Origin: a virus
Virus record (IMG/VR): IMGVR_UViG_3300025840_000334
Coordinates: 1 to 20,675 of that record
Strand: one strand, 5' to 3'
DNA: 20,675 bases
Numbering within the stretch: the stretch's first letter is position 1; each line of letters starts with the position of its first letter. This document shows, in pieces, positions 1 through 20,675 of this stretch. The notes under the pieces were generated by a model that worked only from the letters and a program-made list of their open reading frames with translations, was not told where the DNA came from and searched no databases. A program made the position numbers and the translations under genes.

Positions 1-389
1 AGGCTGGCCCTCTGGTTTTTCCAGGTGTTGCCGTCCATGATTGGCGTGCGGCCTTCCAGGTGCGCAATAAAGTCGTCTTTGCACAGATTCTTGATGCCGG
101 CCCACTCAATCAACTGCTCCAGGTAAGGCCCGCGGATAAACTCAATCAGTTCCTCAACGGCACGCGGATGGTTGTAATGGTTGCCGTATTTGTAGGCCTG
201 CAACTTTTTGCAGCGGCTTCTGACTAGCTTGTATGGCCATTTCTTGGCCACCTTGCCATCCACCAAGATGCCGTTTCGGCGCAATATGTGAATATCAAGC
301 ACCGCCTGCTCCATGATGGCGCACGCAAGCGCAACATAGGGCTCGGTCAAGTTTTCGTTGGGCGTGAATTGGTAAGCGTGGGCTATCAT
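1..389 (-). CDS. Hypothetical early phage protein, C-terminus cut by window edge
   Basis: The reading frame is open from ATG at 389 to the left edge (129 codons, no stop), so the C-terminus lies outside the window. The start overlaps the stop of the upstream gene as ATGA, the coupling used throughout this operon. The protein begins MIAHAYQFTPNENLTEPYVA and continues with an alpha-helical stretch around AIMEQAVLDIHILRR. A basic segment follows (KVAKKWPYKLVRSRCKK). No catalytic motif is visible and I do not recognise the family. Small phage proteins with a similar AI..QAV.D helix occur in replication modules, but that is only a loose resemblance. Its role is unknown; context suggests early replication or recombination. 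Confidence 0.75.
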   Translation of the reverse strand, partial: MIAHAYQFTPNENLTEPYVALACAIMEQAVLDIHILRRNGILVDGKVAKKWPYKLVRSRCKKLQAYKYGNHYNHPRAVEELIEFIRGPYLEQLIEWAGIKNLCKDDFIAHLEGRTPIMDGNTWKNQRAS

Positions 390-613
390 TCGTCGCTCTC
401 CATGTCGTCAATGATTCGATAAGCTGCGCCTAACTCCACCGCCAAATCTTGGGCGGCTTCTTTCCAGTAGATGGCACTGTCTCGCAGTGCCTCATTGAGT
501 TGCCGAAGTTCCTCAAGCTGTGCCTGGCCCTCGTCAATGATTGGGCAAGTGTAAGGCGGCACCTTTGGCGCCTCTCGCTTGATGCGGTCATAAATCTTGA
601 TTGGGTTTCTCAT
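386..613 (-). CDS. Small hypothetical early protein (75 aa)
   Basis: ATG at 613 overlaps the stop of the DnaA-like gene (610-612) as ATGA, and its own stop overlaps the next ATG at 389, so it is coupled on both sides. The protein starts MRNPIKIYDRIKREAPKVPP. Residues about 28-70 form a likely helical or coiled-coil region (QLEELRQLNEALRDSAIYWK) with an acidic end (DDMESDE). There is no recognised domain. The neat overlaps at both ends are the main argument that it is real. Its function is unknown. Confidence 0.75.
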   Translation of the reverse strand: MRNPIKIYDRIKREAPKVPPYTCPIIDEGQAQLEELRQLNEALRDSAIYWKEAAQDLAVELGAAYRIIDDMESDE

Positions 614-927
614 GCTATGGCTAAGGTGATTGCTGCGATTTCGTCGCGCACGCGCTTGCTCTTGGCTAACTTGGCTTTGACCGTCTTAATTGCGTGATAA
701 ACGGAGGCGTGGTTTTTGCGGTTGTAAAAAGCCGCAATATCGCAGTTGCTCATATCGTAAAGCCGCCAAGTTAAATACATTGCAACGTGCCTTGCCCAAG
801 CAAGCGAATGTGTGCGTGCTTGGCTGGTTAGTGCGTCTTTTGGAAACTCATAAAAATCCGCTGTGGCTCTGAGGATGCGCCTCTCTGGCGTTTCTGTTTT
901 TGTTTTGGTGGTTTTACTATTTCGCAT
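610..927 (-). CDS. DnaA domain-IV-like DNA-binding protein
   Basis: This 105-residue protein corresponds to only the C-terminal duplex-DNA-binding domain of the replication initiator DnaA. The helix ERRILRATADFYEFPKDAL (residues 15-33) matches the start of domain IV. ARTHSLAWARHVAMYLTWRL follows, then NHASVYHA at 72-79, the counterpart of the DnaA signature (D)HTTVLHA that reads DnaA boxes. No AAA+ ATPase is present, so it cannot load helicase in the DnaA way. By analogy it could bind an origin or act as a regulator. ATG at 927 lies just before the domain; the upstream frame overlaps it by 100 nt. It sits in the early recombination/replication operon. The family call is good; the role is inferred. 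Confidence 0.8.
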   Translation of the reverse strand: MRNSKTTKTKTETPERRILRATADFYEFPKDALTSQARTHSLAWARHVAMYLTWRLYDMSNCDIAAFYNRKNHASVYHAIKTVKAKLAKSKRVRDEIAAITLAIA

Positions 928-1067
928 GGGTCAACATGGCAGCCAGGCACACTGTCAAGCTCTTCGCCTGGCTCATAAACTTTGATTGATTTGGCCATGA
1001 ACATGGCAGCAGCTTTTTGCCCAATTGGGCTTAGTTTGTGCCAATGTTCGCGAGGAAAAACTTTCAA
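828..1067 (-). CDS. Small hypothetical protein with TTG start
   Basis: This 79-residue frame starts with TTG at 1067, overlapping the TGA of the exonuclease gene as TTGA, which fits the coupling style of the operon. The N-terminal half (FPREHWHKLSPIGQKAAAMF, then AKSIKVYEPGEELDSVPG) looks like a genuine small domain. The last 28 residues are basic and low in complexity, and they lie over the first 100 nt of the DnaA-like gene. There is no clear Shine-Dalgarno sequence. The frame fills an otherwise empty 137-nt gap. No family is recognised. The rare start codon and long overlap lower confidence. Confidence 0.55.
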   Translation of the reverse strand: MKVFPREHWHKLSPIGQKAAAMFMAKSIKVYEPGEELDSVPGCHVDPCEIVKPPKQKQKRQRGASSEPQRIFMSFQKTH

Positions 1068-1891
1068 TAAAACAATTGTAAAATTTGGCTTTTTTGCGGC
1101 GTATAATCAGGCCATTGGTCAAACTCTAGGCAGTCAACTAGGCGCTCAATGTTGGCCATGGTTTCCTTGCCAGCCTGCACCATGTCCTCCGGTGCAAACT
1201 CATATTGGCCGGCCAGGTAATCGCCGCCAGTCTCAACCACTAGCCACACCCATCGCTTGATAGGTAGGCCCGCCCTGGCAGCAATGTGTGTATAATTAAA
1301 CTGCTGCATGTAATATTTCAGTGCCTTGCTCTGGCGTCTGAACGCCATCGGATGCGCGCCGCCTGGCGCCGTGGTTTTGATGTCGTAGACGGTAGCCGTC
1401 GTGGGGTCGTAGGCATCAATTCGGCATTTGCTTGGCATCGGCCAAGCTGTTTGGCTAAAGACTGAAACCTCGGCTTGGCAATCAAGAACCTTGTTGCCTT
1501 CTGGCAATTCACGCATTGCTCGCGCCATGCGCTTAAGTTGGTTTAGGTCGTCCTCCTTAATGGCATTTTCGCCATAGGTGTCCCACCATTCGCGGCTGGC
1601 TTTCTTCCTTCGGTCGGCAAACTCATCAGGGCAAACGGTGATGGTCTTGGTAAAAATGTCCGGTTCCAGCACATAAGTGTGGAACATCGTCCCAAGTGCC
1701 ATGGATGGCGTGCGCTGAAATGACGTCTGCTTGGTCATGCGCTGCCAAAATGCCTTGGGGTTCTCCATCAATTTCAAGTCGGATGTAGCCAGGGCAGGCT
1801 CGGCGCGATAATCGCGCTCTGCCATGCCCTGGAACACACCGTCAAGCGTGCTTGAAAAGACAACCTCAGAATGGGGCGTCAGTGGTTTCAT
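1064..1891 (-). CDS. Phage PD-(D/E)XK exonuclease, RecE/RecB-type
   Basis: Likely a 5'-3' dsDNA exonuclease that makes 3' single-stranded tails for phage recombination. From ATG at 1891 it has 275 residues. The SDLKLMENPKAFWQR segment (37-51) matches the start of exonuclease VIII-like domains. ALGTMFH (65-71) is the G-x-H motif, E141 is a candidate acid, and CRIDAYD carries D159. VYDIKTTA supplies D170 and K172 of the (D/E)xK centre, and QQFNYT (196-201) the terminal Q/Y motif. The frame is open upstream to 2002, but that extension lies inside the ssDNA-binding gene and is not exonuclease-like. The gene lies immediately downstream of that putative partner, overlapping it by 26 nt, as in exonuclease/annealing modules. 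Confidence 0.85.
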   Translation of the reverse strand: MKPLTPHSEVVFSSTLDGVFQGMAERDYRAEPALATSDLKLMENPKAFWQRMTKQTSFQRTPSMALGTMFHTYVLEPDIFTKTITVCPDEFADRRKKASREWWDTYGENAIKEDDLNQLKRMARAMRELPEGNKVLDCQAEVSVFSQTAWPMPSKCRIDAYDPTTATVYDIKTTAPGGAHPMAFRRQSKALKYYMQQFNYTHIAARAGLPIKRWVWLVVETGGDYLAGQYEFAPEDMVQAGKETMANIERLVDCLEFDQWPDYTPQKSQILQLFY

Positions 1892-2453
1892 CAATGGCAA
1901 TTGCTGATTTGTCTGCTGCCTTGTATTCATGGCTTTGCTGCACGCGCTCCTTTTGCCAATCGAGCAGTTTATCCCAATTGACGCTAGGCTTGCTAGGGTC
2001 ATAAGCCATTAACTCGGTTCCGGTTGATTCAATAGCCATGCCCTCTGGCACTGATGAAACGCCGTTAACGCCTGCCGCTTGCTCGCCGCGTCCGTTGGTG
2101 TAATGGCCAACCGTGACCAGGCACTCCTTACCTAACAGGCTCTCAGGGTCAAAATTGCGCAACTCTGCCGCTGTTGGGGCAATCCAAGAATCAAGGTATT
2201 TTCGAAGCACTGCTTTTGGGTCAGTGCTCGCGGTAAACTTCTTGCTGATTCTCATTGGCATTGGCTGGCCATCAATTTCAACCGTCTGCTTTGGCAGCTC
2301 CCATGTGATATTAAGAGTGCGCCTCATTTTAGTTTCGCCCTTGTAGGTCTCAGGGCCGGTCCCTAAGTCCACAATGCTAATGCAGCGGCCTGGGTGCGTG
2401 CCTTTTGGCACTAGTTTGCGTTCAGTGTTTGTTTGTTCGCTTATGGTATTCAT
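1866..2453 (-). CDS. Putative phage ssDNA-binding / recombination partner protein
   Basis: A 195-residue protein starting at ATG 2453, five bases after the stop of the helix-turn-helix gene. VPKGTHPGRCISIVDLG (15-31), RRTLNITWELP and LLGKECLVTVGHYTNGRGEQ have the alternating beta pattern of OB-fold or DUF669-like phage proteins that accompany recombination exonucleases. The C-terminus is acidic (AIAIDETTDAPF), as in many ssDNA-binding proteins, where such a tail recruits partners. It directly precedes the exonuclease gene, supporting a role as ssDNA binder or accessory. No Erf, Bet or RecT signature is visible, so annealase activity is not supported. The start is preceded by a run of A residues rather than a Shine-Dalgarno sequence. 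Confidence 0.6.
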   Translation of the reverse strand: MNTISEQTNTERKLVPKGTHPGRCISIVDLGTGPETYKGETKMRRTLNITWELPKQTVEIDGQPMPMRISKKFTASTDPKAVLRKYLDSWIAPTAAELRNFDPESLLGKECLVTVGHYTNGRGEQAAGVNGVSSVPEGMAIESTGTELMAYDPSKPSVNWDKLLDWQKERVQQSHEYKAADKSAIAIDETTDAPF

Positions 2454-2484
2454 TTTTTTTAGTGTGTTTTTTTTGCTTTTTTTT
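2453..2484 (-). other. Three A8 tracts with two tandem -1 slippery heptamers
   Basis: On the minus strand A8 runs occupy 2484-2477, 2474-2467 and 2460-2453. In the frame of the helix-turn-helix gene the first two read as A-AAA-AAA (2483-2477 and 2474-2468), each a canonical -1 slippery heptamer. The zero-frame stop TAA is at 2461-2459. The -1 frame has no stop before the ATG at 2453 and is the frame of the ssDNA-binding gene. Slippage would therefore produce a fusion. The arrangement is seen directly; functional frameshifting is inference. Confidence 0.5.
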
Positions 2485-2725
2485 GCAGTGATTTGAGAAA
2501 GGAACCGCTGACAAAATGCGGGCGTTGTGCTCGGCCTTTAGCAACAAAAATTGATATTGTAGGCCATTGGTCGTAGATAGCACGCTGCCGAATTCCCATT
2601 GCCGAAACGCCAGTCAGGCGTGCAATGTCGGCAAAGCTGTAAATCTTATCCGCATCAAAGATGTGCTCACTATTCGCCATCTTTCTGTAGGCTGGCGTGT
2701 CTGTGTTGATGTCTTGTGTTTTCAT
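2459..2725 (-). CDS. Small helix-turn-helix DNA-binding protein
   Basis: From ATG at 2725 (ATGA overlap with the upstream gene) this encodes 88 residues; a GTG 12 bases upstream is less convincing. FDADKIYSFADIARLTGVSA, followed by MGIRQRAIYDQWPT, is a helix-turn-helix of the MerR/excisionase or winged-helix kind: FADIARLTGVSAMGIRQRA is the two-helix core. A basic tail follows (KSLQKKAKKTH). Plausible roles are transcriptional regulation, excision, or DNA binding in replication; the sequence cannot decide between them. It ends in A-rich slippery sequence five bases before the ssDNA-binding gene. Confidence 0.7.
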   Translation of the reverse strand: MKTQDINTDTPAYRKMANSEHIFDADKIYSFADIARLTGVSAMGIRQRAIYDQWPTISIFVAKGRAQRPHFVSGSFLKSLQKKAKKTH

Positions 2726-2913
2726 TCGTAGGTCCACTCATGATTGTTGATTTTGCCAAACTCTAAGGGCTGATAAACTTCCCACCTGTCGTTGTGGTTG
2801 TGGCAGTAATAGACGACACCATCATCCCCTAGACCTAACAAAGTGTTGGCCCACGCATCGGTGCTTTTTCCGTCCATAATTTGAATAATTTTTGGCTTAT
2901 ATTCTCTCACCAT
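2722..2913 (-). CDS. Small hypothetical protein (63 aa)
   Basis: ATG at 2913 overlaps the end of the nuclease gene by 7 nt, and its stop overlaps the next ATG. The protein starts MVREYKPKIIQIM. Its core, LLGLGDDGVVYYCHNHNDRW followed by EVYQPLEF, has the look of the small beta proteins common in phage early regions, in which a G-DDG-VYY...W turn is typical. No enzymatic motif is seen. Coupling on both sides makes it very likely translated. Its function is unknown. Confidence 0.75.
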   Translation of the reverse strand: MVREYKPKIIQIMDGKSTDAWANTLLGLGDDGVVYYCHNHNDRWEVYQPLEFGKINNHEWTYE

Positions 2914-3281
2914 TCGTTCTTATCTGTTTGTTGTAGTCGCACCTCCAACGCCTCTAGGTCGCAGCATTGGAGCATGAGAAAAAGCATCTTCATTGGCAGC
3001 ATGGCCCACCACTTGCCGTGATTTTCTCGGTGGCATATCACTGGCACTTGGCCATCCTTAGCGCCAGTGGTGGCTTGATGCTGAAATGAGCGGCGGTCAA
3101 AGGTCTGGGTGCGCTTTACTTCCAGGTGCAAAAAAGGCAAGTCGGCAATTGTCACATCAGCGGCATCATGGCCCTGGTGGTCCTGGTGGTGGCCGGTGCG
3201 TTTGGCATCAAAACCAAACTCGTGTTTTGCGATGTTGGTCACCTCGCGCTCGCCGCCTTTGCCTTTAGTGCGTGCGTTCAT
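2907..3281 (-). CDS. PD-(D/E)XK nuclease, Holliday-junction-resolvase-like
   Basis: This 124-residue protein has the small archaeal-type Hjc / phage nuclease layout. NARTKGKGGEREV gives the first acid (E11), AADVTIADL gives D42, and LHLEVKRTQ gives the E54-x-K56 centre. QATTGAKDGQVPVICHREN (69-87) is the conserved Q/P/N region after the active site. Expected activity is cleavage of branched DNA such as Holliday junctions, or of stalled recombination and packaging intermediates. ATG at 3281 overlaps the preceding stop (ATGA). It sits in the same transcription unit as the exonuclease and putative ssDNA-binding protein. Family membership is firm; the exact substrate is inferred. Confidence 0.85.
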   Translation of the reverse strand: MNARTKGKGGEREVTNIAKHEFGFDAKRTGHHQDHQGHDAADVTIADLPFLHLEVKRTQTFDRRSFQHQATTGAKDGQVPVICHRENHGKWWAMLPMKMLFLMLQCCDLEALEVRLQQTDKNEW

Positions 3282-3553
3282 GGCTTCTGTAAATTATGAG
3301 CGGCCAACTCGACCGCTCGACCACCTGGCTTCCTGAGAGCATAGTCGTGTTTGCTCTGGCTTAATGCCTCCAGGTGGCTGAAATTGCGGGCAGTCACCTC
3401 GACCGCCCAACCTGCCAGTTTATCAAGCCCAAACGTGATTTTGTTGGTGCGGCAATTTGCCGCCTGGCAGGTCATAAAAGAGGATGCCCAAAGCGCCTTG
3501 GCGTTACCTAGCGCCTCAGAGGCGATGTATCCTTGTTGGTGCGCAATGGGCAT
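3278..3553 (-). CDS. Hypothetical protein with internal repeat (91 aa)
   Basis: ATG at 3553 lies 5 nt after the upstream stop, and the gene ends in an ATGA overlap with the nuclease, so the boundaries fit the operon. An upstream extension to 3640 would overlap another gene and is basic and unconvincing. The C-terminal half repeats a motif: GWAVEVTARNF (77 region of the gene's second half) and GRAVELAAHNL near the end, each followed by a -KP element. Two cysteines occur in TCQAANC. The family is not recognised. The DNA is unusually rich in inverted repeats (separate entry), so part of the conservation may act at DNA or RNA level. Confidence 0.6.
   Translation of the reverse strand: MPIAHQQGYIASEALGNAKALWASSFMTCQAANCRTNKITFGLDKLAGWAVEVTARNFSHLEALSQSKHDYALRKPGGRAVELAAHNLQKP
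3308..3472. repeat. Cluster of inverted and direct repeats inside a small gene
   Basis: Seen directly: CTCGACCGC occurs twice (3308-3316 and 3398-3406). CCACCTGG (3321-3328) is matched by CCAGGTGG (3370-3377). ACCTGCCAG (3410-3418) is matched by CTGGCAGGT (3464-3472). GCGGCAATTTGCCGC (3449-3463) is a palindrome with 7-bp arms. Such density could mark a replication origin, a structured RNA or a protein-binding array, or could partly follow from the amino-acid repeat encoded here. Confidence 0.5.
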
Positions 3554-3558
3554 GTGAA

Positions 3559-3705
3559 TCAACGGCGGGCGTTGTGGTTGGAGCCTTTGCAGGCTTCTTT
3601 GCCGTCTGGGGTTGTCGCTAGGTAGCCAGCGGCGGCGCATGCCGCCAAAAGTGTTGTAAGTGTGATGAATATTGCCATGGGATGTTTATTGTTGAAGTCA
3701 AACAT
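3559..3705 (-). CDS. Small lipoprotein-like or membrane protein
   Basis: From ATG at 3705 the protein has 48 residues: a short N-terminus (MFDFNNKHP), a hydrophobic run (MAIFITLTTLLAAC, residues 10-23) that ends in an LAAC lipobox-like motif, and a polar tail (PDGKEACKGSNHNARR). An internal ATG at 3678 would give 39 residues. It would be the first gene of the leftward early operon, just inside the palindrome at 3711-3726. No family is recognised. Superinfection exclusion or an early membrane function would be plausible but is unproven. Confidence 0.5.
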   Translation of the reverse strand: MFDFNNKHPMAIFITLTTLLAACAAAGYLATTPDGKEACKGSNHNARR

Positions 3706-3710
3706 ACACA

Positions 3711-3726
3711 CGGTGTCTGTATACCG
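3711..3726. promoter_or_regulatory. Candidate operator palindrome between divergent units
   Basis: CGGTGTCTGTATACCG is an imperfect palindrome (CGGTnT-n4-AnACCG). It lies between the leftward early operon and the rightward ribbon-helix-helix gene. It is placed where an autorepressor that also controls the early promoter would bind. No strong -35/-10 pair could be fixed. Confidence 0.4.
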
Positions 3727-3774
3727 CAACAAAAAAGTGTTGAAATTTGTTATCAAAATTAACAGGCTTTATGT

Positions 3775-4020
3775 GTGCCTAATAAGCGAGCAGACAACCG
3801 CGTGCGCAAAAACTTTGCCCTACCAAGCGAAGTTGATGACATGCTGCTTGATTTGGCGCGTGCAACTAATCGGTCGGCCACTCAGGTGCTTGAGCTTCTG
3901 ATTGCTCAAGAGCACTCCAAGCGTTCCGCACTAGGTCAGTTGCAAGATATTCAACCGTTGTTTCCTGAGCCGCCGCCAGCGCCTCCAGTTGCGCGTAAGC
4001 GTTCTCGGAAATCGAAATAA
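3775..4020 (+). CDS. Ribbon-helix-helix (RHH) DNA-binding regulator
   Basis: The GTG start at 3775 gives 81 residues; an ATG four bases upstream is out of frame and stops at once. RVRKNFALPSEVDDMLLDLA, followed by RATNRSATQVLELLIAQ, is a textbook Arc/CopG-type RHH unit: beta-strand VRKNFAL, helix A SEVDDMLLDLARAT, turn NRSA, helix B TQVLELLIAQ. The C-terminus is proline-rich and then basic (PEPPPAPPVARKRSRKSK). RHH proteins dimerise and bind short palindromes; palindromes flank this gene at 3711-3726 and 4024-4043. It points away from the early operon, so it is the best candidate for a lysogeny or early-gene repressor in the window. The domain call is strong; its exact role is inferred. Confidence 0.8.
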   Translation: MPNKRADNRVRKNFALPSEVDDMLLDLARATNRSATQVLELLIAQEHSKRSALGQLQDIQPLFPEPPPAPPVARKRSRKSK

Positions 4021-4024
4021 TCAT
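3866..4024 (-). CDS. Antisense frame resembling a second RHH protein (doubtful)
   Basis: Opposite the regulator gene, ATG at 4024 opens 52 residues beginning MIISISENAYAQLEALAAAQ and continuing with TTVEYLATDLVRNAW. The pattern strand-helix-turn-helix looks like an RHH or antitoxin-type protein. There is no clear Shine-Dalgarno sequence, and it lies wholly antisense to a convincing gene, so it may be a shadow. It is listed because its resemblance is stronger than expected for a random antisense frame. Confidence 0.25.
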   Translation of the reverse strand: MIISISENAYAQLEALAAAQETTVEYLATDLVRNAWSALEQSEAQAPEWPTD

Positions 4025-4043
4025 ACCGTCATTATGTGCGGTA
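4024..4043. promoter_or_regulatory. Palindrome TACCG-N10-CGGTA downstream of the RHH gene
   Basis: A perfect 5-bp inverted repeat TACCG (4024-4028) / CGGTA (4039-4043) lies just after the regulator's stop and before the next rightward gene. Its half-sites match the arms of the palindrome at 3711-3726 in opposite orientation. It may be a second binding site for the regulator. Short arms mean chance cannot be excluded. Confidence 0.3.
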
Positions 4044-4068
4044 GGGGTAAGACAAAAACCGTCCAACC

Positions 4069-4257
4069 ATGGAGAATGTGAACAAGTTTGATAACCATGG
4101 CCCAGCATACCTGGCCAAGCAGTTGGCCAATGTTAGGCAATCAGTGGACGCCCTTGAACGCGTGGCAATGGAGCAGGGCAGGGAAGGTCAGGCAGCAGTT
4201 GAACTGAGAAAAACGCACCAGCAATTGGAGCGCTTGATTAGCGAAATGACAGACTAG
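4069..4257 (+). CDS. Small coiled-coil protein (62 aa)
   Basis: ATG at 4069, 48 bases after the RHH gene on the same strand. The protein is almost wholly helical and heptad-like: PAYLAKQLANVRQSVDALER, then EGQAAVELRKTHQQLERLIS. It carries no DNA-binding motif and is not recognised. Position between the regulator and the att site/integrase suggests an accessory lysogeny or excision role, but that is inference. An antisense frame across 4141-4356 runs through the tRNA-like sequence and is not credible. Confidence 0.55.
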   Translation: MENVNKFDNHGPAYLAKQLANVRQSVDALERVAMEQGREGQAAVELRKTHQQLERLISEMTD

Positions 4258-4275
4258 AAATTGCCAGAAATTGGC

Positions 4276-4298: not shown

Positions 4299-4299
4299 A

Positions 4300-4371
<72 letters not shown>

Positions 4372-4452
4372 ACGAGAATTAAAATGGTTTCGATAGGACG
4401 GTTTGTCAAATGCTAATCGGCTCTAATGGGCAAAAAGAGGGGAAGAGAAGCA

Positions 4453-5235
4453 ATGACAACACACAAAACATGGGGTCACTTGATTGACCTGTATGGCAGC
4501 ATTGGCAAGCAACAGACCATTTGGCGCAAGTGTCAGGAATTTAGGCAGTTGCGCTGGAAAAAACTCCGTCAAAAAGCCATCAAAGACACCGATGGCACTG
4601 ATTTTTTAGAGCTTCTGAATGCCGGTGGCGCCATGACTCGCGTCTACCTACACGCGCTCCAAAATATGGCCCTTGAGTGCGGCGATATTTACCGCCCAAT
4701 CCTGGCCGCCAAATGGTGGCCCAAGTCACCCAAAATCCCTAAGCGCGCCATCACTTTTGAGGAACATTGTAGGTTGAGTCTCAACGTATCGCGCAGGTCG
4801 TGGCGCTGGTATCTGACTATTTTATGGGAAACAGGCGCCGCCCAGGCAGACGCGGCAGACTTTCGCCTTGAGGCAATCAAGGATGGCGTCATGACCTATC
4901 ACAGGCACAAAAATGGCCGCCGTGCCGCCTTTAGGCTATCCAAGGCAATGATTGAGGTTGTTGCGCAAGCCGCCGGCGAGCGAAAGGTTGGTTATATTTT
5001 GCCCACCATCCAGCGAGAAGGCACCAACTGCCGCGCCACCGTCTTTCGCAATCTCTGCAAACGCCTTGGCATCCAGGGCGTGACCTTGCACTCCTATCGC
5101 TACGCCTGGGCGGTGCGTGCCTTTGAAATGGGCATCCCTGAGCGGCTTGCTATGGTTGGCCTCGGTCACAACTCAAGCGCCGTTCATCACGCCTACGCCA
5201 GCGGTGCGCGCCTTGTGGCCCCTGCGCTTGAGTAA
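4453..5235 (+). CDS. int: Tyrosine integrase lacking the canonical first arginine
   Basis: Site-specific recombinase expected to integrate the phage at a tRNA-Lys gene. ATG at 4453 is chosen because a GAGGGGAAG Shine-Dalgarno sequence precedes it; an in-frame ATG at 4426 lacks one. From 4453 it has 260 residues. C-terminal catalytic features: HSYR (213-216, box II His and Arg), LGHNSSAV (His 239), HHAYA (nucleophile Tyr 248), and a candidate beta-hairpin Lys 153 (HKNGR). The box I region reads WETGAAQADAADF (125-137), with Ala where TGxR is normal. HSYRYAWA...GHNSSAVHHAYA resembles, from memory, integrases frequent in Verrucomicrobiota. It lies beside the tRNA-like att site, convergent with the late genes. 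Confidence 0.85.
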   Translation: MTTHKTWGHLIDLYGSIGKQQTIWRKCQEFRQLRWKKLRQKAIKDTDGTDFLELLNAGGAMTRVYLHALQNMALECGDIYRPILAAKWWPKSPKIPKRAITFEEHCRLSLNVSRRSWRWYLTILWETGAAQADAADFRLEAIKDGVMTYHRHKNGRRAAFRLSKAMIEVVAQAAGERKVGYILPTIQREGTNCRATVFRNLCKRLGIQGVTLHSYRYAWAVRAFEMGIPERLAMVGLGHNSSAVHHAYASGARLVAPALE

Positions 5236-5331: not shown

Positions 5332-5343
5332 TTATTTTGAAGC

Positions 5344-13116: not shown

Positions 13117-13117
13117 T

Positions 13118-13811: not shown

Positions 13812-14731
13812 GAGTAAATAGGGTGAAACTCTGTTGGCAGTTCGCCTGCTTCCATGTTGATGAACTCGCTGGCAATCTCGAATTTGCCATTGTATAGCTC
13901 CGTGATAGTGGGCGCCTTTTTAAGCCAATAGGTGCCAGCAAAATCGAGCAAGAGCTCGCCGCAAATGCTGTATTTTGTTGCCTCGATTTTCTGCGTCAAT
14001 ATCAGGTCAACAACGCGATTGGTTGTCCACTGGTAACCTTTGCGCCAAGTAGATGCCTTAAGCAGTGTATTGGCTGGCACGATACGAGTGTTGCGCAAGG
14101 TGTATTTGTCCTCGTTGTATGTCTCATGCCCATAGGCCAGCATGTGCGCAAGCTCGGTTGTCTTATCTCTAACAGCAGTTGAATAAACCAGAGGAACGCC
14201 AGTTGTGTCCGTTTCTGCTGTGTTGTTTGGTCCAACAGTTGTGTCGCCGCCGCCACTGCTGCCATACATGTATTCTTCTATCTTAAAAACTGCGCTTACC
14301 TTAGTGCCTGCCTCCATGTCGCCCCGAACTTTGTTTTGATATGACTCGGCGGCAGCAACAACCTTGGCAACGTGGCCAGGGTCGGCCACAAAGCGCAGCG
14401 TTGAAAAATAGGGATGCTCCCAGGCGTTACGCTGCACCTCGTATGGTGCAAAGGTCCAAACGTCTGTCTCTGGCTCAACTGAAGGCGTGTCGACAATGGT
14501 GTTGTCGATGCTAGAAAAGGTGACTTCTAAGATGCCATAACCGCCATCTTCTTGGCGCACATTGACGCGGGTGGCGTTGCCAACATATGAGTTACTTGTG
14601 GATGCGGTCAGGATGTCGGCATAGCGCCCCTTGTAAGTGTAGGTGGACTCCCAGCCATTAGTCTCTGAAAATGTGCGCTCAACGTGAACGCTGGACGCCA
14701 AGTTTGTGCTGCCTTTGAAATGCAAACTCAT
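13808..14731 (-). CDS. Putative distal tail protein
   Basis: 307 residues, ATG at 14731, overlapping the end of the tape measure gene (ATGA). It is beta-rich with aromatic clusters: WESTYTYKGRYADILTA, GGYGILEVTFSS, VQRNAWEHPYFSTLRFVADP, YGSSGGGDTTVG. There is a long helical stretch around VAKVVAAAESYQNKVRG. No enzyme motif is seen. Directly after the tape measure, phages of this type encode distal tail or baseplate proteins, and the size fits. The family was not recognised from sequence, so the call rests mainly on position. Confidence 0.55.
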   Translation of the reverse strand: MSLHFKGSTNLASSVHVERTFSETNGWESTYTYKGRYADILTASTSNSYVGNATRVNVRQEDGGYGILEVTFSSIDNTIVDTPSVEPETDVWTFAPYEVQRNAWEHPYFSTLRFVADPGHVAKVVAAAESYQNKVRGDMEAGTKVSAVFKIEEYMYGSSGGGDTTVGPNNTAETDTTGVPLVYSTAVRDKTTELAHMLAYGHETYNEDKYTLRNTRIVPANTLLKASTWRKGYQWTTNRVVDLILTQKIEATKYSICGELLLDFAGTYWLKKAPTITELYNGKFEIASEFINMEAGELPTEFHPIYS

Positions 14732-15552
14732 TGAGTGAATCCCTTGGAAATGTCGCGCAGGTAGTTCCTTGATTGTTTAGCCGCAAGCTCAATCTCAAGC
14801 TGCGCGCGCAAATATTCGTCATCTAACGCCTCAGAGCCATAGCGGCCGTATATTGTGCCAGCCACATTGCCAATCTTGTCCGTTAAATAATCAAGAAACT
14901 GGATTGCCATGGTTTTGCCTTCTTCCATGGACTTCATGTATGAGCTCCGCCCAGCGGCATATTCTGAAACTTGCTCTGGCGTAAACGCTGCTACCGACAA
15001 GTCTAGGTTTTCGGCAAAGCCTTCATTGATTGCGGCAGCCATGCGTTTGCCGTTGTCGCTCATCAACTCATCAAGGTCGAATGTCTTTTGGCTTACATCA
15101 TAAACAGATTGTCGCATCCCCTTGGCGAACTCTTGGAATAGTTCAAGCGGTTGCCGTATTTGCGGCACATCGCCAAAATGGATTCCGTAGCGGCTGAATA
15201 TATCAATGAAGTTTTTGCTGCCCTCTATTGCCTCATATTGCCTTGTATTAAGGTCATTGATTGCGTCTCGCAAATCCTCAATGTCAACCCCAGCCAATCT
15301 GGCAGCATAGGCAAGCGCCTGGAACTCTGTTGTGGACATGCCAAGCTGTGCTGCCTCTTTTTGAATGTTAAAGGCCTCCTCATAGAGCCCTCCAACGCTC
15401 GATACAACGCGCTCCAATGCCATGGCGCCAGCAATTTGCCCGCCAATGCCAGAGGCGGCGCTCTTGGCCCAATTATTGAAGCCGGCGCGCATACGCTTAA
15501 GACCAGCATTAAAACTGGTCGTGTCCATGCCTACCTTAAAGTTAAGATTCAA
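14728..15552 (-). CDS. Short tail tape measure protein
   Basis: 274 residues. The start is TTG at 15552, chosen because AAAGGAGG lies 6 nt upstream and the LNFKVGMDTTSFNAGLKRM start matches the xxFKVGxDTxxFxxGLxxM opening of tape measures. Next come NWAKSAASGIGGQIAGAMAL (hydrophobic) and the recurrent tape-measure segment EEAFNIQKEAAQLGMSTTEF, then QALAYAARLAGVDIEDLRDA, seen in many phages. At about 1.5 Angstrom per residue, 274 residues predict a tail near 40 nm, shorter than usual for siphoviruses. It lies between the chaperone candidate and the distal tail candidate, as expected. Confidence 0.8.
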   Translation of the reverse strand: MNLNFKVGMDTTSFNAGLKRMRAGFNNWAKSAASGIGGQIAGAMALERVVSSVGGLYEEAFNIQKEAAQLGMSTTEFQALAYAARLAGVDIEDLRDAINDLNTRQYEAIEGSKNFIDIFSRYGIHFGDVPQIRQPLELFQEFAKGMRQSVYDVSQKTFDLDELMSDNGKRMAAAINEGFAENLDLSVAAFTPEQVSEYAAGRSSYMKSMEEGKTMAIQFLDYLTDKIGNVAGTIYGRYGSEALDDEYLRAQLEIELAAKQSRNYLRDISKGFTQ

Positions 15553-16572: not shown

Positions 16573-16588
16573 AGTTTATCGAATTTGG

Positions 16589-17014
16589 TTAAACGGTTGT
16601 CACTCCCAGCGCGGCTGGGAATGTTAAGGTGATTGATTCGCGCAAAATGGTGCCTTCCACATCGCGCTCGATGCCGCTTTGGTCGGCAACTCCGAAAATA
16701 TAAAAATCAGTGGCGCCAACATTGATGGCCTGGAGCTCGCTCCAGAATAACGATTCCTCAACGGCGGTCAGTAATTCGTCATGGACATCAAGCGCATTAG
16801 GTTGGCCATCTTCGTCAATCTCGCTCTGCACGCTGATGGTTAAGGTCACATCCATGTTGCCGGTGTTGGGCGGGTTTTGACTTGCGCCCACAAATGCCAC
16901 CACGACGCAAGGCATGGCCTTGATGGTGTCATTGGTGCCAGCATAAACCGGCACGCCAACCTGGTCTTGCAGGTAGGCCTTGAACGCCTCTTCTGTCTGC
17001 TTGCGGTAACTCAT
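16589..17014 (-). CDS. Probable tail completion / terminator protein
   Basis: 141 residues, ATG at 17014 overlapping the upstream stop. TEEAFKAYLQDQVGVPVYAG, IKAMPCVVVAFVG, MDVTLTISVQSEIDED, DVHDELLTAVEESLFWSELQ, and ESITLTFPAALGVTTV give a helix-beta-beta-helix-beta order like gpU / HK97 gp10-neighbour tail terminators: an N-terminal helix, a central VxxxxVxV strand, a D-H-D helix and a closing strand. Such proteins cap the head-proximal end of the tail tube. Its position, just before the tube gene, agrees. No definitive signature was seen. Confidence 0.55.
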   Translation of the reverse strand: MSYRKQTEEAFKAYLQDQVGVPVYAGTNDTIKAMPCVVVAFVGASQNPPNTGNMDVTLTISVQSEIDEDGQPNALDVHDELLTAVEESLFWSELQAINVGATDFYIFGVADQSGIERDVEGTILRESITLTFPAALGVTTV

Positions 17015-17700
17015 AGCTTCCTAATTGCCAGCGATTGCACGGCATTGGTTTTCTTGGTTGTGTGCCAGTCTTTTGGAATCTTGCGCCGCAAATAGGTCAG
17101 CATGTCGCGTGTCTCCATGTTAAACGCTAGGCGCAAACCTTGGCGCGCTCCTGGTATGTTGCCGCTTTCTTTGCTGCCATGAACGCCACGAGCAAATGGC
17201 TTAAGCGCACCAATGCGCCGCTCTGGTCTGCCTTCGCCTTTAGGTTTGCCAATCTGGAATTTCTTTCGGCTGCCTCTCACACTGCGCGGTGGCTTGATAT
17301 ATGGCCCAATATCGCTTGCAGTGCCAAGCCAGGCGGCAGCCATAAAACCGCGACCTTTTTGGCGGTGAGCAATAGCAGTGGCAACGGCGTTTTTCATTGG
17401 TTCGCCCCACATGCCTTTTTTGCCTTTTTTGCCTCGGTGATAGTTGGTCAAGATAGCTGCAACGGGTGCGCGTTTGCCTCGCTTTGAACTGCTTGGTTGA
17501 ATCTTGGCCGCTCGCATCATGTCGCGCTTGATTTTCTGCGCTGTGACTTTTGGCGTTTTGCCTACTGCCTTGAGCGCGATGTTAAATGAGCGCTTGTTGA
17601 CTTCGTTTGTGAAACTGCGTCCGCTATATTTTAAATAGGCGTTAAGAACGCGGTTAAAGCGCTGCGTGTCAAAATCAACATTGATGCCGCTGGCGTTCAT
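17011..17700 (-). CDS. Basic head-tail / minor tail protein (HK97 gp10-like position)
   Basis: 229 residues, ATG at 17700 overlapping the upstream stop (ATGA). It is strongly basic: RSFNIALKAVGKTPKVTAQK, RDMMRAAKIQPSSSKRGKRA, NYHRGKKGKKGMWG, RSVRGSRKKFQIGKPKGEGR. The opening FDTQRFNRVLNAYLKYSGRS is the helical start often seen in phage minor tail or neck proteins of the HK97 gp10 kind. It lies between a head completion candidate and the tail completion candidate. A role in the neck or in tail attachment fits. The high charge may indicate contact with DNA. Confidence 0.5.
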   Translation of the reverse strand: MNASGINVDFDTQRFNRVLNAYLKYSGRSFTNEVNKRSFNIALKAVGKTPKVTAQKIKRDMMRAAKIQPSSSKRGKRAPVAAILTNYHRGKKGKKGMWGEPMKNAVATAIAHRQKGRGFMAAAWLGTASDIGPYIKPPRSVRGSRKKFQIGKPKGEGRPERRIGALKPFARGVHGSKESGNIPGARQGLRLAFNMETRDMLTYLRRKIPKDWHTTKKTNAVQSLAIRKL

Positions 17701-18341
17701 TGCTTCTTCATCAGCCCAAGCTCAAAGCTCGCGTCATTGGTTAGCACCTGCTGAATCTTGAACCGTTTGCCGCCCTTGGTGAGCGTGGCGCCCACAATCG
17801 GCTTGATGCCAGCATCAGCCCACTGCTTGCGGTTGGTGGTTAGCGTCAGGTCGTAGCCCTCCAAGATGCCGCCATCTTCGAGTTCCTTGGTTTCAGTGTT
17901 GCCGCTCTCAACGCATCGCAAAACGTTGCCGTGGTAATCAAACACGCTGCCTGCAGTGCGCTCCAGGTCCACCTGCTGCTCGTATAAAAACCGCGAGCGG
18001 TGGTGGCCCTGGTCAACAATGTATTGCTCTTGAAAATTGGTGTGCGGCGTTGGGTGGCTATGCGCCACACTGTGAAAGCAATCAGTGCGCGTGATGCCGC
18101 GCCCATCTGGCACGTTCAAGGTGATGGTGTAAACGTCTTCCCACTCGCCGCTTTCGTTTGTGCGCTGCACCGTGTAGGCCGCCGCATCATATTGCGCCGC
18201 ATCAGCGGTGACGCGGATGATGACGTTACCAGCGCCAAAGGTGCCGCCCTCGCCAATCGTTGCGAACGTGGTTGGCGTGTCGTGCAAGGCGGTCTCATAG
18301 AGCCAGCCTGAGCGCGTGTTGATTATGCGGTTGTTGGCCAT
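17697..18341 (-). CDS. Putative head closure / head-tail adaptor protein
   Basis: 214 residues. ATG at 18341 lies only two bases after a terminator's T-tract and has no Shine-Dalgarno sequence. Beta segments include GTFGAGNVIIRVTADAA, EWEDVYTITLNVPDGRG and LEGYDLTLTTNRKQWAD; the end PIVGATLTKGGKRFKIQQVL followed by TNDASFELGLMKKQ resembles the closing strands of small head-completion (gpFII-like) proteins. The middle is His-rich (CFHSVAHSHPTPHTNFQEQY and DQGHHRSRF). Position after the capsid and before the tail genes supports the call, but the length is greater than usual for head closure proteins. Confidence 0.45.
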   Translation of the reverse strand: MANNRIINTRSGWLYETALHDTPTTFATIGEGGTFGAGNVIIRVTADAAQYDAAAYTVQRTNESGEWEDVYTITLNVPDGRGITRTDCFHSVAHSHPTPHTNFQEQYIVDQGHHRSRFLYEQQVDLERTAGSVFDYHGNVLRCVESGNTETKELEDGGILEGYDLTLTTNRKQWADAGIKPIVGATLTKGGKRFKIQQVLTNDASFELGLMKKQ

Positions 18342-18342
18342 T

Positions 18343-18381
18343 TAAAAAACCCAGGCGAGCAGTTGCCCGCCGCGCCTGGGT
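18343..18381 (-). terminator. Intrinsic terminator after the capsid genes
   Basis: On the minus strand ACCCAGGCG (18381-18373) pairs perfectly with CGCCTGGGT (18357-18349) around a 15-base loop and is followed by TTTTTT (18349-18344). This is a strong rho-independent terminator after the basic 77-residue gene. The T-tract runs straight into AAATGG, where the next gene starts at 18341. Confidence 0.85.
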
Positions 18382-18417
18382 GTGGGGTGTGGTGACCTAG
18401 CGAACGGTGGCAGTAAA

Positions 18418-18651
18418 TTAGGCGCTAGCCTTTTTCTTGGCCTTGGCTTTTGGCGCGGATACGTCAACCTTGAGGTCGGCGCGCTTCCAGTAGGGCGGCT
18501 TTCTGTAAACACTAACGCCGCTGTATTTACCAGACGGGTTTTCGCGTTCAGCAATAAAGGCAGCCTTGCATTTGTCGGCGTCACCCATAGCTATCAGCTC
18601 AGGTGAGCCATCAGGCAAAAATCCTATCGTGAATGAAGTCTTGAATATCAT
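18418..18651 (-). CDS. Small basic-tailed capsid-associated protein
   Basis: 77 residues from ATG at 18651, seven bases after the end of the second coat protein. It starts MIFKTSFTIGFLPDGSPELI, contains DADKCKAAFIAE, and ends with a lysine/alanine-rich tail (PKAKAKKKASA), resembling histone H1-like ends. Small proteins of this pattern (helix, GDAxKCxxAFxAE, basic Ala/Lys/Pro tail) often follow the major capsid gene in phages. It could bind DNA or the capsid interior. An upstream extension to 18699 overlaps the coat gene and is unlikely. Its function is unknown. Confidence 0.65.
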   Translation of the reverse strand: MIFKTSFTIGFLPDGSPELIAMGDADKCKAAFIAERENPSGKYSGVSVYRKPPYWKRADLKVDVSAPKAKAKKKASA

Positions 18652-18658
18652 GGTTTTG

Positions 18659-19546
18659 TTATTGGTCGGTGATTCTGATAAGTGCGTTTTGGTTGCCAAC
18701 TGAGCATCCGTAGAGGATGCCCACGGTTAGAAACCATTTGCCCAAAGTTGGGTTATAAAATTTGCGTGTCTGAAATGGCAGCCCAGTGCGCGGCTCTATG
18801 TTGTCTATGACCTCTGTGTTGCCATAGAGCGGGCGCGCGATTTGCCGCGCTGCAATACATAGCGCGCTTGGGTGGCAGTAAAATCCTTGCAGGTTGTTGC
18901 CAGTCGGGATGTCTTGATATTCGGCCACACCAAAACCGTGAATGGTTGAAAGCTCGCCCTCTTGGATTGGCTGCGCTGTGCCATAGGCGCTGGCATCAAT
19001 AATGCCTCCGTCTTTGCTAAGGCTTGCCGTGTAAGACGGGTTGAGCATGACGGTTCTCAGCGACCGTGGACAACCATTGTTTGTTAATGTGCTGGCGGCG
19101 TCTGCCAAATCATCACTGTCGTAATTGGCGGCAGTCCTGACTTGGGAGGCGCTGAATGCGGCGGGCGTAATGAGGCCAAGCAAATCGTCGGCGACCGCTT
19201 TTGCTGTGGCATCTATGGCAGGGCGCAAAAACGTGCGCTCTAGAATGGTCGGGCTCTTGAGTTTTGAAATCTCAAAATCAGTAAACGCCATTGAGAAGCC
19301 CTTGAACTTGTTAAGCTCAATCTCAATGGCCGTGCTTGTTACATCACTGGCGCTGTAGCCAGCAGACAAATCTTTAACTGTGACCGAAGAGGGAACGCGG
19401 GTCACTGTGCGGTCGCCGCGCTCCCTGACTTCGGTTGAGAAGTTGCGACTCACAAGCGAAAAGGCGAAAAAGTTGGAGGATAGCAAGTCGAGCATTTGCT
19501 CGCTTACTGCTTCCAAATAGACGCCGCTTGAGAGTGCGTTTGCCAT
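18659..19546 (-). CDS. Second major-capsid-like protein (paralogue B)
   Basis: 295 residues, ATG at 19546, nine bases after the stop of paralogue A and of exactly the same length. Shared blocks with A: TRVPSSVTVKDLSAGYSASD (TRVPSS-T--DLS-GY-A-DVTSTA), LNKFKGFSMAFTDFEISK, HPSALCIAARQ, and TGLPFQTRKFYNPTLGK with G-LYG. The fold class is phage coat protein, possibly P22/HK97-like, judged by pattern and genomic position. Phe codons are mostly TTT (10 of 15 by my count), unlike A (1 of 10), suggesting weaker expression. It may form a minor capsomer, a vertex variant, or an alternative coat. Confidence 0.7.
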   Translation of the reverse strand: MANALSSGVYLEAVSEQMLDLLSSNFFAFSLVSRNFSTEVRERGDRTVTRVPSSVTVKDLSAGYSASDVTSTAIEIELNKFKGFSMAFTDFEISKLKSPTILERTFLRPAIDATAKAVADDLLGLITPAAFSASQVRTAANYDSDDLADAASTLTNNGCPRSLRTVMLNPSYTASLSKDGGIIDASAYGTAQPIQEGELSTIHGFGVAEYQDIPTGNNLQGFYCHPSALCIAARQIARPLYGNTEVIDNIEPRTGLPFQTRKFYNPTLGKWFLTVGILYGCSVGNQNALIRITDQ

Positions 19547-19555
19547 AAGCCTAAC

Positions 19556-20443
19556 TTACGCGGACTTAATGCGTTTCAATGCGGCACCATTACCCTTTGC
19601 CACACCGTAGAGCACACCCATGGACAAGTAGTGTTTGCCGGCGGTGTTGTCATACCAGGTGCGGAGCTGGATAGGCAGCCCAGTGGAAGGGTCAACGATG
19701 TCGGAAACCTGGACGCTGCCATCAGCAGGCGCAGCAGGCTGGCGAGCGGCCAAACACAGCGCAGATGGATGCAGCGCAATGGCGGCAAGGTTCTCGCTGT
19801 TGGTTGGAATGCCGGTGTATTCATACAGGTTAAAACCATGCACGCGCTGCGCGGCATTTTCCTGCACGCCGGCTGGGGTGCCGTAGCTAGAGGCATCCTG
19901 CACGATGGCATCCTTCTGGATGCTGGCGTAATAGGATGGTGGCAGAATCAAAGCGCGCTCGCTCTTAGGGCATTTGGCGGTGGTCAAGTCGGCTGCCAAA
20001 TCGGCCACCTCGTCAACGTCGAAGTTGGCGGCAGTGATGACCTCGTTGGCGCTGAAGTTTGCGTTTAGCACCAGGGCGAGCAAGTCGTCCATTACGGCGT
20101 CGAGGGTGACTTCCAGAGCAGGCGCCAAGAACACGCTGGACAACCAATCGAAGTTGCCAGCTTTGCTCACTTCCATATCAGTGAACGCCATGCTGTAGCC
20201 CTTGAACTTGTTCAAGGTCACAGTAACAGCGGTTGAGGTAACATCCGTTGCAGCGTAACCGGTCGACAAATCGCTTGCGGTCATGCTAGACGGAACGCGA
20301 GTGGTTACAGATTCGCCGGCGCCGCTGATGTCATCGCTGAAGTCGCGAGAGAATGCGCGGAGCGGGTGGAACTGAGTTGAGAGATAGTCGAGGCTTTGCT
20401 CACTGATTTGAGCGATGTTGATGCCCCCTAAGGTGTTGCTCAT
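19556..20443 (-). CDS. Major capsid protein (paralogue A)
   Basis: 295 residues, ATG at 20443. Typical phage coat blocks: SLDYLSTQFHPLRAFSRDFS, TRVPSSMTASDLSTGYAATD, LNKFKGYSMAFTDMEVSK, ILPPSYYASIQKDAIVQD, HPSALCLAARQ and YLSMGVLYGVAKGNG. No peptidase or scaffold domain is attached; the scaffold role may fall to the small upstream protein or another gene beyond the edge. C-ending codons dominate (9 of 10 Phe codons are TTC), as in strongly expressed capsid genes, so A is more likely the main shell protein. It is followed by a paralogue of equal length. Confidence 0.8.
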   Translation of the reverse strand: MSNTLGGINIAQISEQSLDYLSTQFHPLRAFSRDFSDDISGAGESVTTRVPSSMTASDLSTGYAATDVTSTAVTVTLNKFKGYSMAFTDMEVSKAGNFDWLSSVFLAPALEVTLDAVMDDLLALVLNANFSANEVITAANFDVDEVADLAADLTTAKCPKSERALILPPSYYASIQKDAIVQDASSYGTPAGVQENAAQRVHGFNLYEYTGIPTNSENLAAIALHPSALCLAARQPAAPADGSVQVSDIVDPSTGLPIQLRTWYDNTAGKHYLSMGVLYGVAKGNGAALKRIKSA

Positions 20444-20471
20444 TAGATTTTAGCTTTCTAAGGCTCTATAA

Positions 20472-20657
20472 TTAGAGCCGGTTTTTAATGTTTTTGAGGT
20501 AGAAAGCGCGGCGCTCCTGGCGGTCTTCAATGGCATTGTATTGATGCCATAGAGTGTCCATGTTTGCCTCTGGTGCCGGCTCTTCGGTTGCTTCTTCAAC
20601 TGGTGCCTCAACGCCAACAGATGCGGCGATTTCAACCGCCTTGTCTGCTGCGCTCAT
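20472..20657 (-). CDS. Small acidic protein upstream of the capsid genes
   Basis: 61 residues, ATG at 20657. The N-terminal half is acidic and Ala/Glu/Pro-rich (VEIAASVGVEAPVEEATEEP); the C-terminal half is helical (MDTLWHQYNAIEDRQERRAF, then YLKNIKNRL). A YNxIxDxxxRxxFY helix of this kind is found in small phage proteins just before the coat gene. A scaffolding-like or capsid-assembly role is inferred from position. It is preceded by a strong Shine-Dalgarno sequence (GAGGAGC) 5-11 nt upstream, so it should be highly translated. Confidence 0.7.
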   Translation of the reverse strand: MSAADKAVEIAASVGVEAPVEEATEEPAPEANMDTLWHQYNAIEDRQERRAFYLKNIKNRL

Positions 20658-20661
20658 CTTT

Positions 20662-20668
20662 TGCTCCT
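20662..20668 (-). promoter_or_regulatory. Strong ribosome binding site before the pre-capsid gene
   Basis: The minus strand reads GAGGAGC four to five bases upstream of ATG at 20657, among the strongest Shine-Dalgarno sequences in the window, consistent with high expression of the capsid module. Confidence 0.65.
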
Positions 20669-20675
20669 CAAGAAG

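What the first reader, a model, noticed from the sequence alone, without database searches (positions are those of the whole stretch)
1..20675. GATC is completely absent
A read of every ATC trinucleotide in the window (well over 200) found none preceded by G. With near-balanced composition about 80 GATC sites would be expected in 20.7 kb, and GATC is a palindrome so both strands are covered. Loss of every site points to long selection against a GATC-targeting restriction system (Sau3AI/MboI/DpnII-like) in the host range. It also constrains codon choice throughout.
Basis: seen in the sequence. Interest (0 to 1): 0.85.

Follow-up and report, generated by a model that had tools for sequence, protein, structure and literature searches.

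The report
Phage clade without GATC sites
A group of uncultured bacterial viruses, of which this window is one, has purged the four-letter site GATC from its DNA, most likely to escape bacterial enzymes that cut there; the trick is known from other phages, but here a whole branch of a family has it while close relatives do not.

Summary
GATC occurs 0 times in 20,675 bases: 79 expected from base composition, 52 from a Markov model, 47 from dinucleotide shuffles, 49.5 +/- 5.5 when synonymous codons are shuffled with proteins fixed. Only the word is avoided: Asp GAT is used 0 of 43 times before C but 136 of 291 elsewhere; Ile ATC 0 of 49 after G but 103 of 224 elsewhere.

The window is a phage fragment with an integrase beside a tRNA-like attP, distantly related to verrucophage P8625. 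In a terminase tree all 43 zero-GATC rows form one clade (98/94) and the 15 rows of the sister group all carry GATC; both head-protein trees agree, a portal tree does not. In 94 contigs of the clade (875 kb) I found 3 GATC against about 3,400 expected from composition: one in a sequencing-adapter remnant, two in a hairpin of one contig.

Best reading: elimination of a Type II restriction site under pressure from GATC-cutting (DpnII- or DpnI-like) hosts. No host or enzyme was identified. Precedents exist (phage K, phiX174), so this is a new member of a known kind; its clade-wide reach is unusual.

The parts
1..20675 (.). GATC-free stretch (the whole record); 29 genes used for the codon test
   Evidence: 0 GATC; codon shuffle mean 49.5, minimum 31 of 300 shuffles; context-exact codon avoidance
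4426..5235 (+). integrase: points to a temperate life style of this phage
   Evidence: PF00589 E 4e-7, phrog_1 E 5.6e-9; relatives in G003 (81% id) and G004 (95% id; one search counts 3 stops inside that match, none over the catalytic part)
4306..4365 (-). tRNA-like stretch beside the integrase, read here as attP in a tRNA-Lys gene (anticodon CTT read by eye)
   Evidence: Rfam RF00005 54.4 bits, model positions 7-64 of 71; ARAGORN found no complete tRNA; tRNA-like core kept in G003 and G004
19556..20443 (-). major head protein, copy 1 (marker for relatives)
   Evidence: phrog_283 E 2.4e-29; P8625 relative at 41% identity
18659..19546 (-). major head protein, copy 2 (paralogue, 51% identity)
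   Evidence: both copies recur in relatives
1064..2002 (-). exonuclease VIII-like gene of the early module
   Evidence: phrog_412 E 2.2e-48; NCBIfam exodeoxyribonuclease VIII E 4e-20, far below cut-off; relatives also in GATC-bearing phages
2907..3281 (-). PD-(D/E)XK nuclease (Pfam PDDEXK_15, just below its cut-off); tested and rejected as cause of the GATC loss
   Evidence: PF24608 E 6.7e-6, 26.5 bits against cut-off 27; phrog_244 E 4e-12; 47% identical to the G006 copy, whose 53-59% identical relatives sit in 14 loci with 44-149 GATC each
610..927 (-). small protein with a DnaA C-terminal (helix-turn-helix) domain
   Evidence: PF08299 E 8.7e-17
14728..15552 (-). short tape-measure-like tail protein
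   Evidence: phrog_2276 E 7.2e-12

Best explanation
The phage lineage has eliminated GATC by selection, so that GATC-specific restriction enzymes of its hosts find nothing to cut. Shown: complete absence in the window; near-complete absence across a clade; ordinary or only partly lowered GATC in close relatives; exact context dependence of the codon avoidance; no effect of composition or protein content. Inferred: the agent is a GATC-cutting restriction enzyme in the host pool (DpnII/MboI/Sau3AI type, or a mix with DpnI-like enzymes that cut the methylated site; against such a mix only losing the site protects). Most gene trees fit a single loss in the clade's ancestor, held since. The hosts may be relatives of the P8625 host (Opitutae/Puniceicoccales), a weak inference from gene relatedness.
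For: Zero against 47-79 expected and 49.5 +/- 5.5 with proteins fixed. Asp GAT before C 0/43 against 136/291 elsewhere, Ile ATC after G 0/49 against 103/224: only the four-letter word is avoided. All 43 zero rows one clade (98/94), one change on the terminase tree, sister group of 15 rows all with GATC; one clade also in both head-protein trees, the first of which holds the window (SH-aLRT 96 and 100). 94 contigs, 875,352 bases, 3 GATC against 3,059 + 339 (composition) or 1,675 + 108 (Markov); the last 13 contigs were fetched after the pattern was known and all 13 had 0. GATC-bearing relatives: 32 contigs, 261,553 bases, 1,171 against 1,018 or 1,306. The most avoided 4-mer of each of seven pooled groups is a palindrome, and P8625 has GTAC 0/60, GGNCC 2/44, CCATGG 0/12.6, a fingerprint of Type II sites. 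Published: site elimination in phages concerns mostly orthodox Type II sites, and GATC is depleted in all 46 phages whose hosts encode Type IIM (DpnI-like) GATC enzymes (PMC6286503: abstract, Discussion part 1 and passages); phage K lacks GATC against Sau3A (PMC6532042, passages).
Against: No host, prophage or attB was found in genome contigs (two peptide patterns and one exact 37-mer), so no cognate enzyme is shown. Published work finds site elimination rarer in temperate phages (PMC6286503), yet this phage has an integrase. GATC-bearing phages that share an early gene with the clade may share hosts and tolerate GATC. One contig of the clade (L187) carries two GATC in an intergenic hairpin, so the ban is not quite absolute. 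The portal tree needs two changes of state. Some GATC-bearing relatives are themselves depleted (L066 0.20, L064 0.38, L054 0.41, L055 0.43 of composition; G013 74 against 98 in codon shuffles), so the divide is sharp only at zero. The homologous-site check is weak: 0 of 35-50 GATC of G013 or L070 survive in each of five clade genomes, but control words such as TCGA and CTAG also survive rarely.
Confidence: 0.72

Rival explanations
1. The cause is carried by the phage: a phage-encoded GATC-cutting nuclease attacks host or rival DNA, and the phage is immune because it has no site. This would explain why the ban follows the phage's own tree.
For: The ban is inherited down the clade. A predicted PD-(D/E)XK-like protein ('C33', G005 1151-1588; motif read by eye) was found in six viral contigs, five placed in the clade and one (L200) GATC-free but unplaced, plus G021 and L018 of the clade by clustering; no GATC-bearing record turned up. 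Foldseek lists DpnI chains at ranks 5, 7 and 29 (prob 0.15-0.28, E 0.03-0.16; nothing reached E 0.001).
Against: No DpnII-family match in 10 phage records, some of them fragments. PDDEXK_15: 53-59% identical relatives in 14 loci with 44-149 GATC each; exoVIII-like relatives at 41-42% identity sit in loci with 36 and 79 GATC. In the second-look alignment of the C33 model (pLDDT 73.9) archaeal Hjc resolvases come first (Z 7.4 and lower, weak) and DpnI is not among the 50 entries shown. No evidence of specificity; the window does not reach the C33 locus.
Confidence: 0.07
2. GATC is avoided to escape Dam/MutH-type mismatch repair nicking, as proposed for phiX174 and enterobacterial phages, and not to escape restriction.
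For: phiX174 lacks GATC, and restoring sites lowers its mutation rate eightfold (PMC5014478, abstract and passages); MutH toxicity for phage DNA with unmethylated GATC is cited in PMC4687349 (passages).
Against: Dam/MutH repair is mainly a gammaproteobacterial system (recalled); the nearest cultured relative infects Verrucomicrobia. The family also avoids palindromes that MutH does not read (its specificity recalled): GTAC in all seven groups, CCGG and CGCG in the G017 group. In phiX174 the proposed advantage vanished under stress.
Confidence: 0.06
3. The host genome itself is GATC-poor (from its own restriction history), and the prophage has drifted to the host's word usage.
For: Temperate phages follow host word usage more closely than virulent ones (PMC6286503); GATC is under-represented in 38 of 42 genomes with DpnI-like systems (PMC4687349, passages).
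Against: Drift should leave residual sites; 3 in 875 kb needs strong continuing selection (inference). The other palindromes reach neither this level nor this uniformity in the clade. Near-complete clade contigs G005, G011 and G012 show no PF00589 integrase, so long prophage life is not evident for them.
Confidence: 0.08
4. Composition, codon usage or assembly artefact.
For: None found.
Against: Codon-fixed shuffles, exact context test, contigs from many metagenome assemblies, and GATC-bearing relatives.
Confidence: 0.01

Closest known systems
Staphylococcus phage K (Kayvirus) without GATC sites
   Same: Complete loss of GATC from a dsDNA phage, attributed to Sau3A restriction (PMC6532042, passages).
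   Different: Phage K is large and virulent (that it is virulent is recalled) and has a known host enzyme; here contigs of up to about 30 kb, some with integrases, no host known, and a deep clade beside GATC-bearing relatives.
phiX174 without GATC
   Same: No GATC where about 20 are expected (PMC5014478).
   Different: 5.4-kb ssDNA phage; debated cause is mismatch repair.
Verrucomicrobia phage P8625 (KP792622)
   Same: Head protein 41% identical; portal and terminase homologues in the clade; same habit of losing a palindrome: GTAC 0 of about 60 expected.
   Different: 198 GATC in 32,894 bases; reported as lytic (PMC4642752, passages) and no PF00589 integrase; carries a ParB-methylase gene.
DpnI/DpnII pair of Streptococcus pneumoniae
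   Same: A mixed host population that cuts either methylated or unmethylated GATC; site loss is the escape that works against both (last point inferred; systems as described in PMC4687349, passages).
   Different: Gram-positive hosts (recalled); no such pair has been shown for the hosts here.

Membership tests
Type II restriction-site elimination (anti-restriction by site loss) | Site nearly absent against a sound background (observed/expected under 0.1) | tested here: met
   0 of 47-79 expected in the window; 3 of about 3,400 (composition) in 94 contigs
Type II restriction-site elimination (anti-restriction by site loss) | Word itself is avoided, not its codons or its amino acids | tested here: met
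   Asp GAT before C 0/43 against 136/291; Ile ATC after G 0/49 against 103/224
Type II restriction-site elimination (anti-restriction by site loss) | Relatives not under the pressure keep the site | tested here: met
   15 sister rows all with GATC; 32 contigs 1,171 sites against 1,018-1,306 expected, four of them at 0.2-0.43 of composition. That they are not under the pressure is assumed
Type II restriction-site elimination (anti-restriction by site loss) | Hosts encode a restriction enzyme for the site | not testable with these tools
Type II restriction-site elimination (anti-restriction by site loss) | Commoner in virulent than in temperate phages (a published tendency, not a requirement) | tested here: inconclusive
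   PF00589 integrase in 3 of 13 zero-GATC records (G000, G003, G004), 2 of 4 other GATC-bearing records (G013, G024) and not in P8625; G017 has an ORF similar to those of G013 and G024 but below Pfam detection. Many records are fragments
P8625-like verrucophages | Homologous head, portal and terminase proteins | tested here: met
   Head protein 41%; terminase of G011 27%; portal cluster shared. The window itself holds only the head protein of these
P8625-like verrucophages | Verrucomicrobial host | not testable with these tools
   No host or prophage found
Phage-encoded GATC nuclease | A DpnII-family enzyme in the phage | tested here: not met
   0 of 10 records, with 1 of 14 control genomes ringing; several records are fragments
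Phage-encoded GATC nuclease | Nuclease found only where GATC is absent | tested here: inconclusive
   Failed by PDDEXK_15 and exoVIII-like proteins; C33 seen only in GATC-free contigs, fold weakly Hjc-like
GATC loss by mismatch-repair avoidance (phiX174 type) | Host with Dam and MutH | not testable with these tools
   Host unknown

The most novel reading that the evidence does not exclude
The GATC ban is not a response to passing host strains but a vertically inherited property of the phage lineage: either a phage-encoded GATC-specific nuclease (C33 is the candidate left of the three tested) or a GATC-cutting defence so universal in one host group that members of a deeply diverged clade can hardly regain a site. 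GTAC, CCGG and CGCG vary between sub-lineages, as expected of passing pressures, while GATC alone is fixed.
Probability: 0.12. Interest if true: 0.72.

Novelty: new member of a known kind. Interest (0 to 1): 0.5.

Why it matters
It is a clean natural experiment in anti-restriction: close groups of one phage family, one with essentially no GATC and others with it, some members carrying integrases although site elimination is reported to be rarer in temperate phages. It predicts a GATC-cutting defence in a still unknown host group and offers word fingerprints (GATC; GATC+GTAC+CCGG+CGCG; GTAC+GGNCC+CCATGG) that could help match uncultured phages with hosts. It also implies that GATC-based library methods (DpnII, MboI or Sau3AI digestion, DpnII Hi-C) would miss such phages (inference).

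Tried and rejected
Composition and codon bias: rejected by shuffles and context counts.

Host search: the head-protein alignment against genome contigs gave 105 pattern matches and no relative; the exact 37-base attP core gave none there and, among viral contigs, only the two relatives already known, so I could not test whether unrelated phages with the same integration site also lack GATC. Papers: 'Coraliomargarita' with 'restriction-modification' gave 0; 'Verrucomicrobia, GATC, methylation, restriction' gave 3, of which I saw passages of one, a lake metaepigenome (PMC6329791, 12 of 16 places); those passages give no GATC methylation for verrucomicrobial bins BS6, BS8 and BS10.

Phage-encoded cause: DpnII family 0 of 10 records; PDDEXK_15 and exoVIII-like nucleases rejected; C33 not rejected. 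C33 gave no family at cut-off or at weight in Pfam, PHROGs, PADLOC or NCBIfam and no PDB sequence match of weight.

Methylase as alternative protection: PF01555 in 5 of 18 records (G005, G012 without GATC; G013, G022, P8625 with GATC), on both sides of the divide, so it does not explain the pattern; specificities unknown. G011 also has a PHROG DNA methyltransferase and G013 a C5 methylase.

Single origin: three of four gene trees (terminase, two head proteins) give one change of state, the portal tree two, with long outgroup branches and no starred branch forcing two. So a single loss is likely, not shown.

Counts left out: L200, L287 and L288 (0 GATC each) were not in the 94-contig tally because they were unplaced; L220 and other pieces of records already counted were dropped. 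In one search I printed only part of the 94 new loci; among distant nuclease carriers L226, L233 and L248 were also GATC-poor and were not followed. Contigs from several samples may be near copies; the 94 are not 94 independent tests.
Full report
Observation. GATC is absent from the 20,675-base window on both strands, and it is the only missing 4-mer. Because most of the window is coding, I also shuffled synonymous codons within 29 genes: 49.5 +/- 5.5, minimum 31 in 300 shuffles, observed 0.

The avoided unit is the word. In the window Asp is written GAT 136 of 291 times when the next base is not C, and 0 of 43 times when it is C. Ile is ATC 103 of 224 times when not preceded by G, and 0 of 49 times after G. 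Gly GGA before TC is 0 of 16, which says little because GGA is rare (42 of 446 elsewhere). All three are 0 in the five other clade genomes tested (G003, G005, G011, G017, G019) and none is 0 in the four GATC-bearing relatives (G013, L070, G023, P8625), though G013 is mildly low.

What the window is. The record is a virus contig of exactly this length. It encodes two major head proteins, tail genes, an exonuclease VIII-like gene, a PDDEXK nuclease, a DnaA C-terminal-domain protein, and an integrase beside a tRNA-like stretch. Reading the anticodon as CTT (Lys) is mine, by eye. Integrase and tRNA-like attP indicate that this phage is temperate (inference). Among the clade, 3 of 13 zero-GATC records searched have a PF00589 integrase (G000, G003, G004); the near-complete contigs G005, G011 and G012 have none at that threshold, and G017 has only an ORF similar to those of G013 and G024. 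So the clade as a whole is not shown to be temperate. The only head-protein relative among named phages is verrucophage P8625, 41% identical, isolated on a Puniceicoccales strain.

Relatives. Head-protein search of viral contigs gave 79 loci: 58 without GATC (504,926 bases, 1,204 expected by Markov) and 21 with (165,316 bases, 628 against 728). Of the 58, 56 match the window's head protein at 84-100% identity; L077 and L078 give 50% in their best segment. Adding terminase searches, a tree of 65 terminases puts all 43 zero rows in one clade (98/94) with one change of state; the 15 rows of the sister group all have GATC, as do L125, L126, L184, P8625 and three outgroup rows. That tree lacks the window, which has no terminase. 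On re-check I built quick trees of other genes: both head proteins give one zero clade (SH-aLRT 96 and 100; 27 zero and 17 other rows; the window is inside in the first tree drawn), while the portal tree joins the window's group with GATC-bearing relatives (90, not starred) and needs two changes. A single loss is the likelier history, not a proven one.

Size of the effect. 81 contigs placed in the clade hold 788,155 bases and 3 GATC, against 3,059 (composition) or 1,675 (Markov). A last search added 13 contigs, 87,197 bases, 0 GATC against 339 or 108. Of the 3 sites, one is at position 10 of G012 in TGCTCTTCCGATCT, which I recognise from memory as the end of an Illumina adapter. The other two are 13 bases apart in L187, in a 15-base-pair hairpin just after the terminase gene; L187 belongs to the clade by its terminase fragment (98.6% over 148 residues) and its portal and head protein. 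The hairpin arm was seen in no other GATC-free or GATC-poor locus held. I count L187 as a real exception. Among the 32 GATC-bearing contigs a few are depleted (L066 0.20, L064 0.38, L054 0.41, L055 0.43 of composition).

Other words. In seven pooled groups the lowest 4-mer is a palindrome every time. GTAC is low in all seven, least so in G022/G023 (24 against 42). The G017 group also nearly lacks GTAC, CGCG and CCGG (6, 8 and 16 against 89, 61 and 88); P8625 has no GTAC (60 expected), 2 GGNCC (44 expected) and no CCATGG (12.6 expected). Codon shuffles confirm GTAC, CCGG and CGCG for G017 and GTAC for P8625. This looks like several Type II pressures, with GATC alone fixed through a whole clade. 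In G017 GAT and ATC codons are rare even outside the GATC context (63 of 430, 34 of 296), so codon usage itself may have shifted; its own codon-shuffle expectation is therefore only 25.

Mechanism. Selection by GATC-cutting restriction in the host pool is the best reading (0.72). A pool holding both DpnII-like and DpnI-like strains would explain why loss of the site rather than methylation is used, since methylation exposes DNA to the latter; that is inference from the pneumococcal case (PMC4687349, passages). The step from selection to a named enzyme is not shown.

Rivals. A phage-encoded nuclease would make the ban heritable with the phage. I tested three nuclease families of the clade. Two have relatives in GATC-rich phages. 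The third, C33, turned up only in GATC-free contigs; its moderate-quality model (pLDDT 73.9) is weakly Hjc-like (Z 7.4), while Foldseek puts DpnI chains at ranks 5, 7 and 29 at low probability. Mismatch-repair avoidance and drift to a GATC-poor host remain possible but explain less. Composition and artefact are excluded.

Compared with what is known. Complete GATC loss is known in phage K (PMC6532042) and phiX174 (PMC5014478), and site elimination is an established strategy, less frequent in temperate phages (PMC6286503). New here is the clade-wide case with close GATC-bearing relatives in uncultured phages. In the paper searches I ran the titles and abstract starts listed showed no description of this group's GATC loss; I opened passages of six papers in all.

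Re-check. Mended after holding the report against the calls: habitat wording dropped (no call looked it up), temperate claim narrowed, single-origin claim qualified, DpnI ranks and depleted relatives added.

Noticed in passing
P8625 (L082), whole record: GTAC is absent (about 60 expected by Markov), GGNCC 2 of 44 and CCATGG 0 of 12.6: a different set of lost sites in the nearest cultured relative.
   Followed up: partly
L187:465-495: A hairpin with two GGATCC after the terminase gene carries the only two credible GATC sites of the clade.
   Followed up: partly
L189/L190 (G017) and relatives: Sub-lineage that nearly lacks GTAC, CCGG and CGCG besides GATC; its GAT and ATC codons are rare in all contexts.
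   Followed up: partly
L083:1151-1588 (-): C33, a conserved PD-(D/E)XK-like protein found only in GATC-free contigs, no family at cut-off, weakly Hjc-like model.
   Followed up: yes
L211-L223: Phage loci without a detected head-protein or terminase match to the clade that share a PDDEXK_15 nuclease with it; 12 of these 13 have very low GTAC but normal GATC (L220 is a piece of clade member G003). Perhaps phages of related hosts.
   Followed up: no
window 610-927 (-): Small phage protein with a DnaA C-terminal domain; whether it binds DnaA boxes of host or phage was not tested.
   Followed up: no
window 18659-20443 (-): Two tandem major head protein genes, 51% identical, conserved as a pair in relatives, while only one was found in P8625.
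   Followed up: no
L201 / G012 position 10: Adapter remnant at the end of an IMG/VR contig gives a false GATC.
   Followed up: yes
L098, L197 and other portal trees: Portal and head-protein trees disagree on where the G017/G019 groups join, a hint of recombination between capsid and packaging genes.
   Followed up: no
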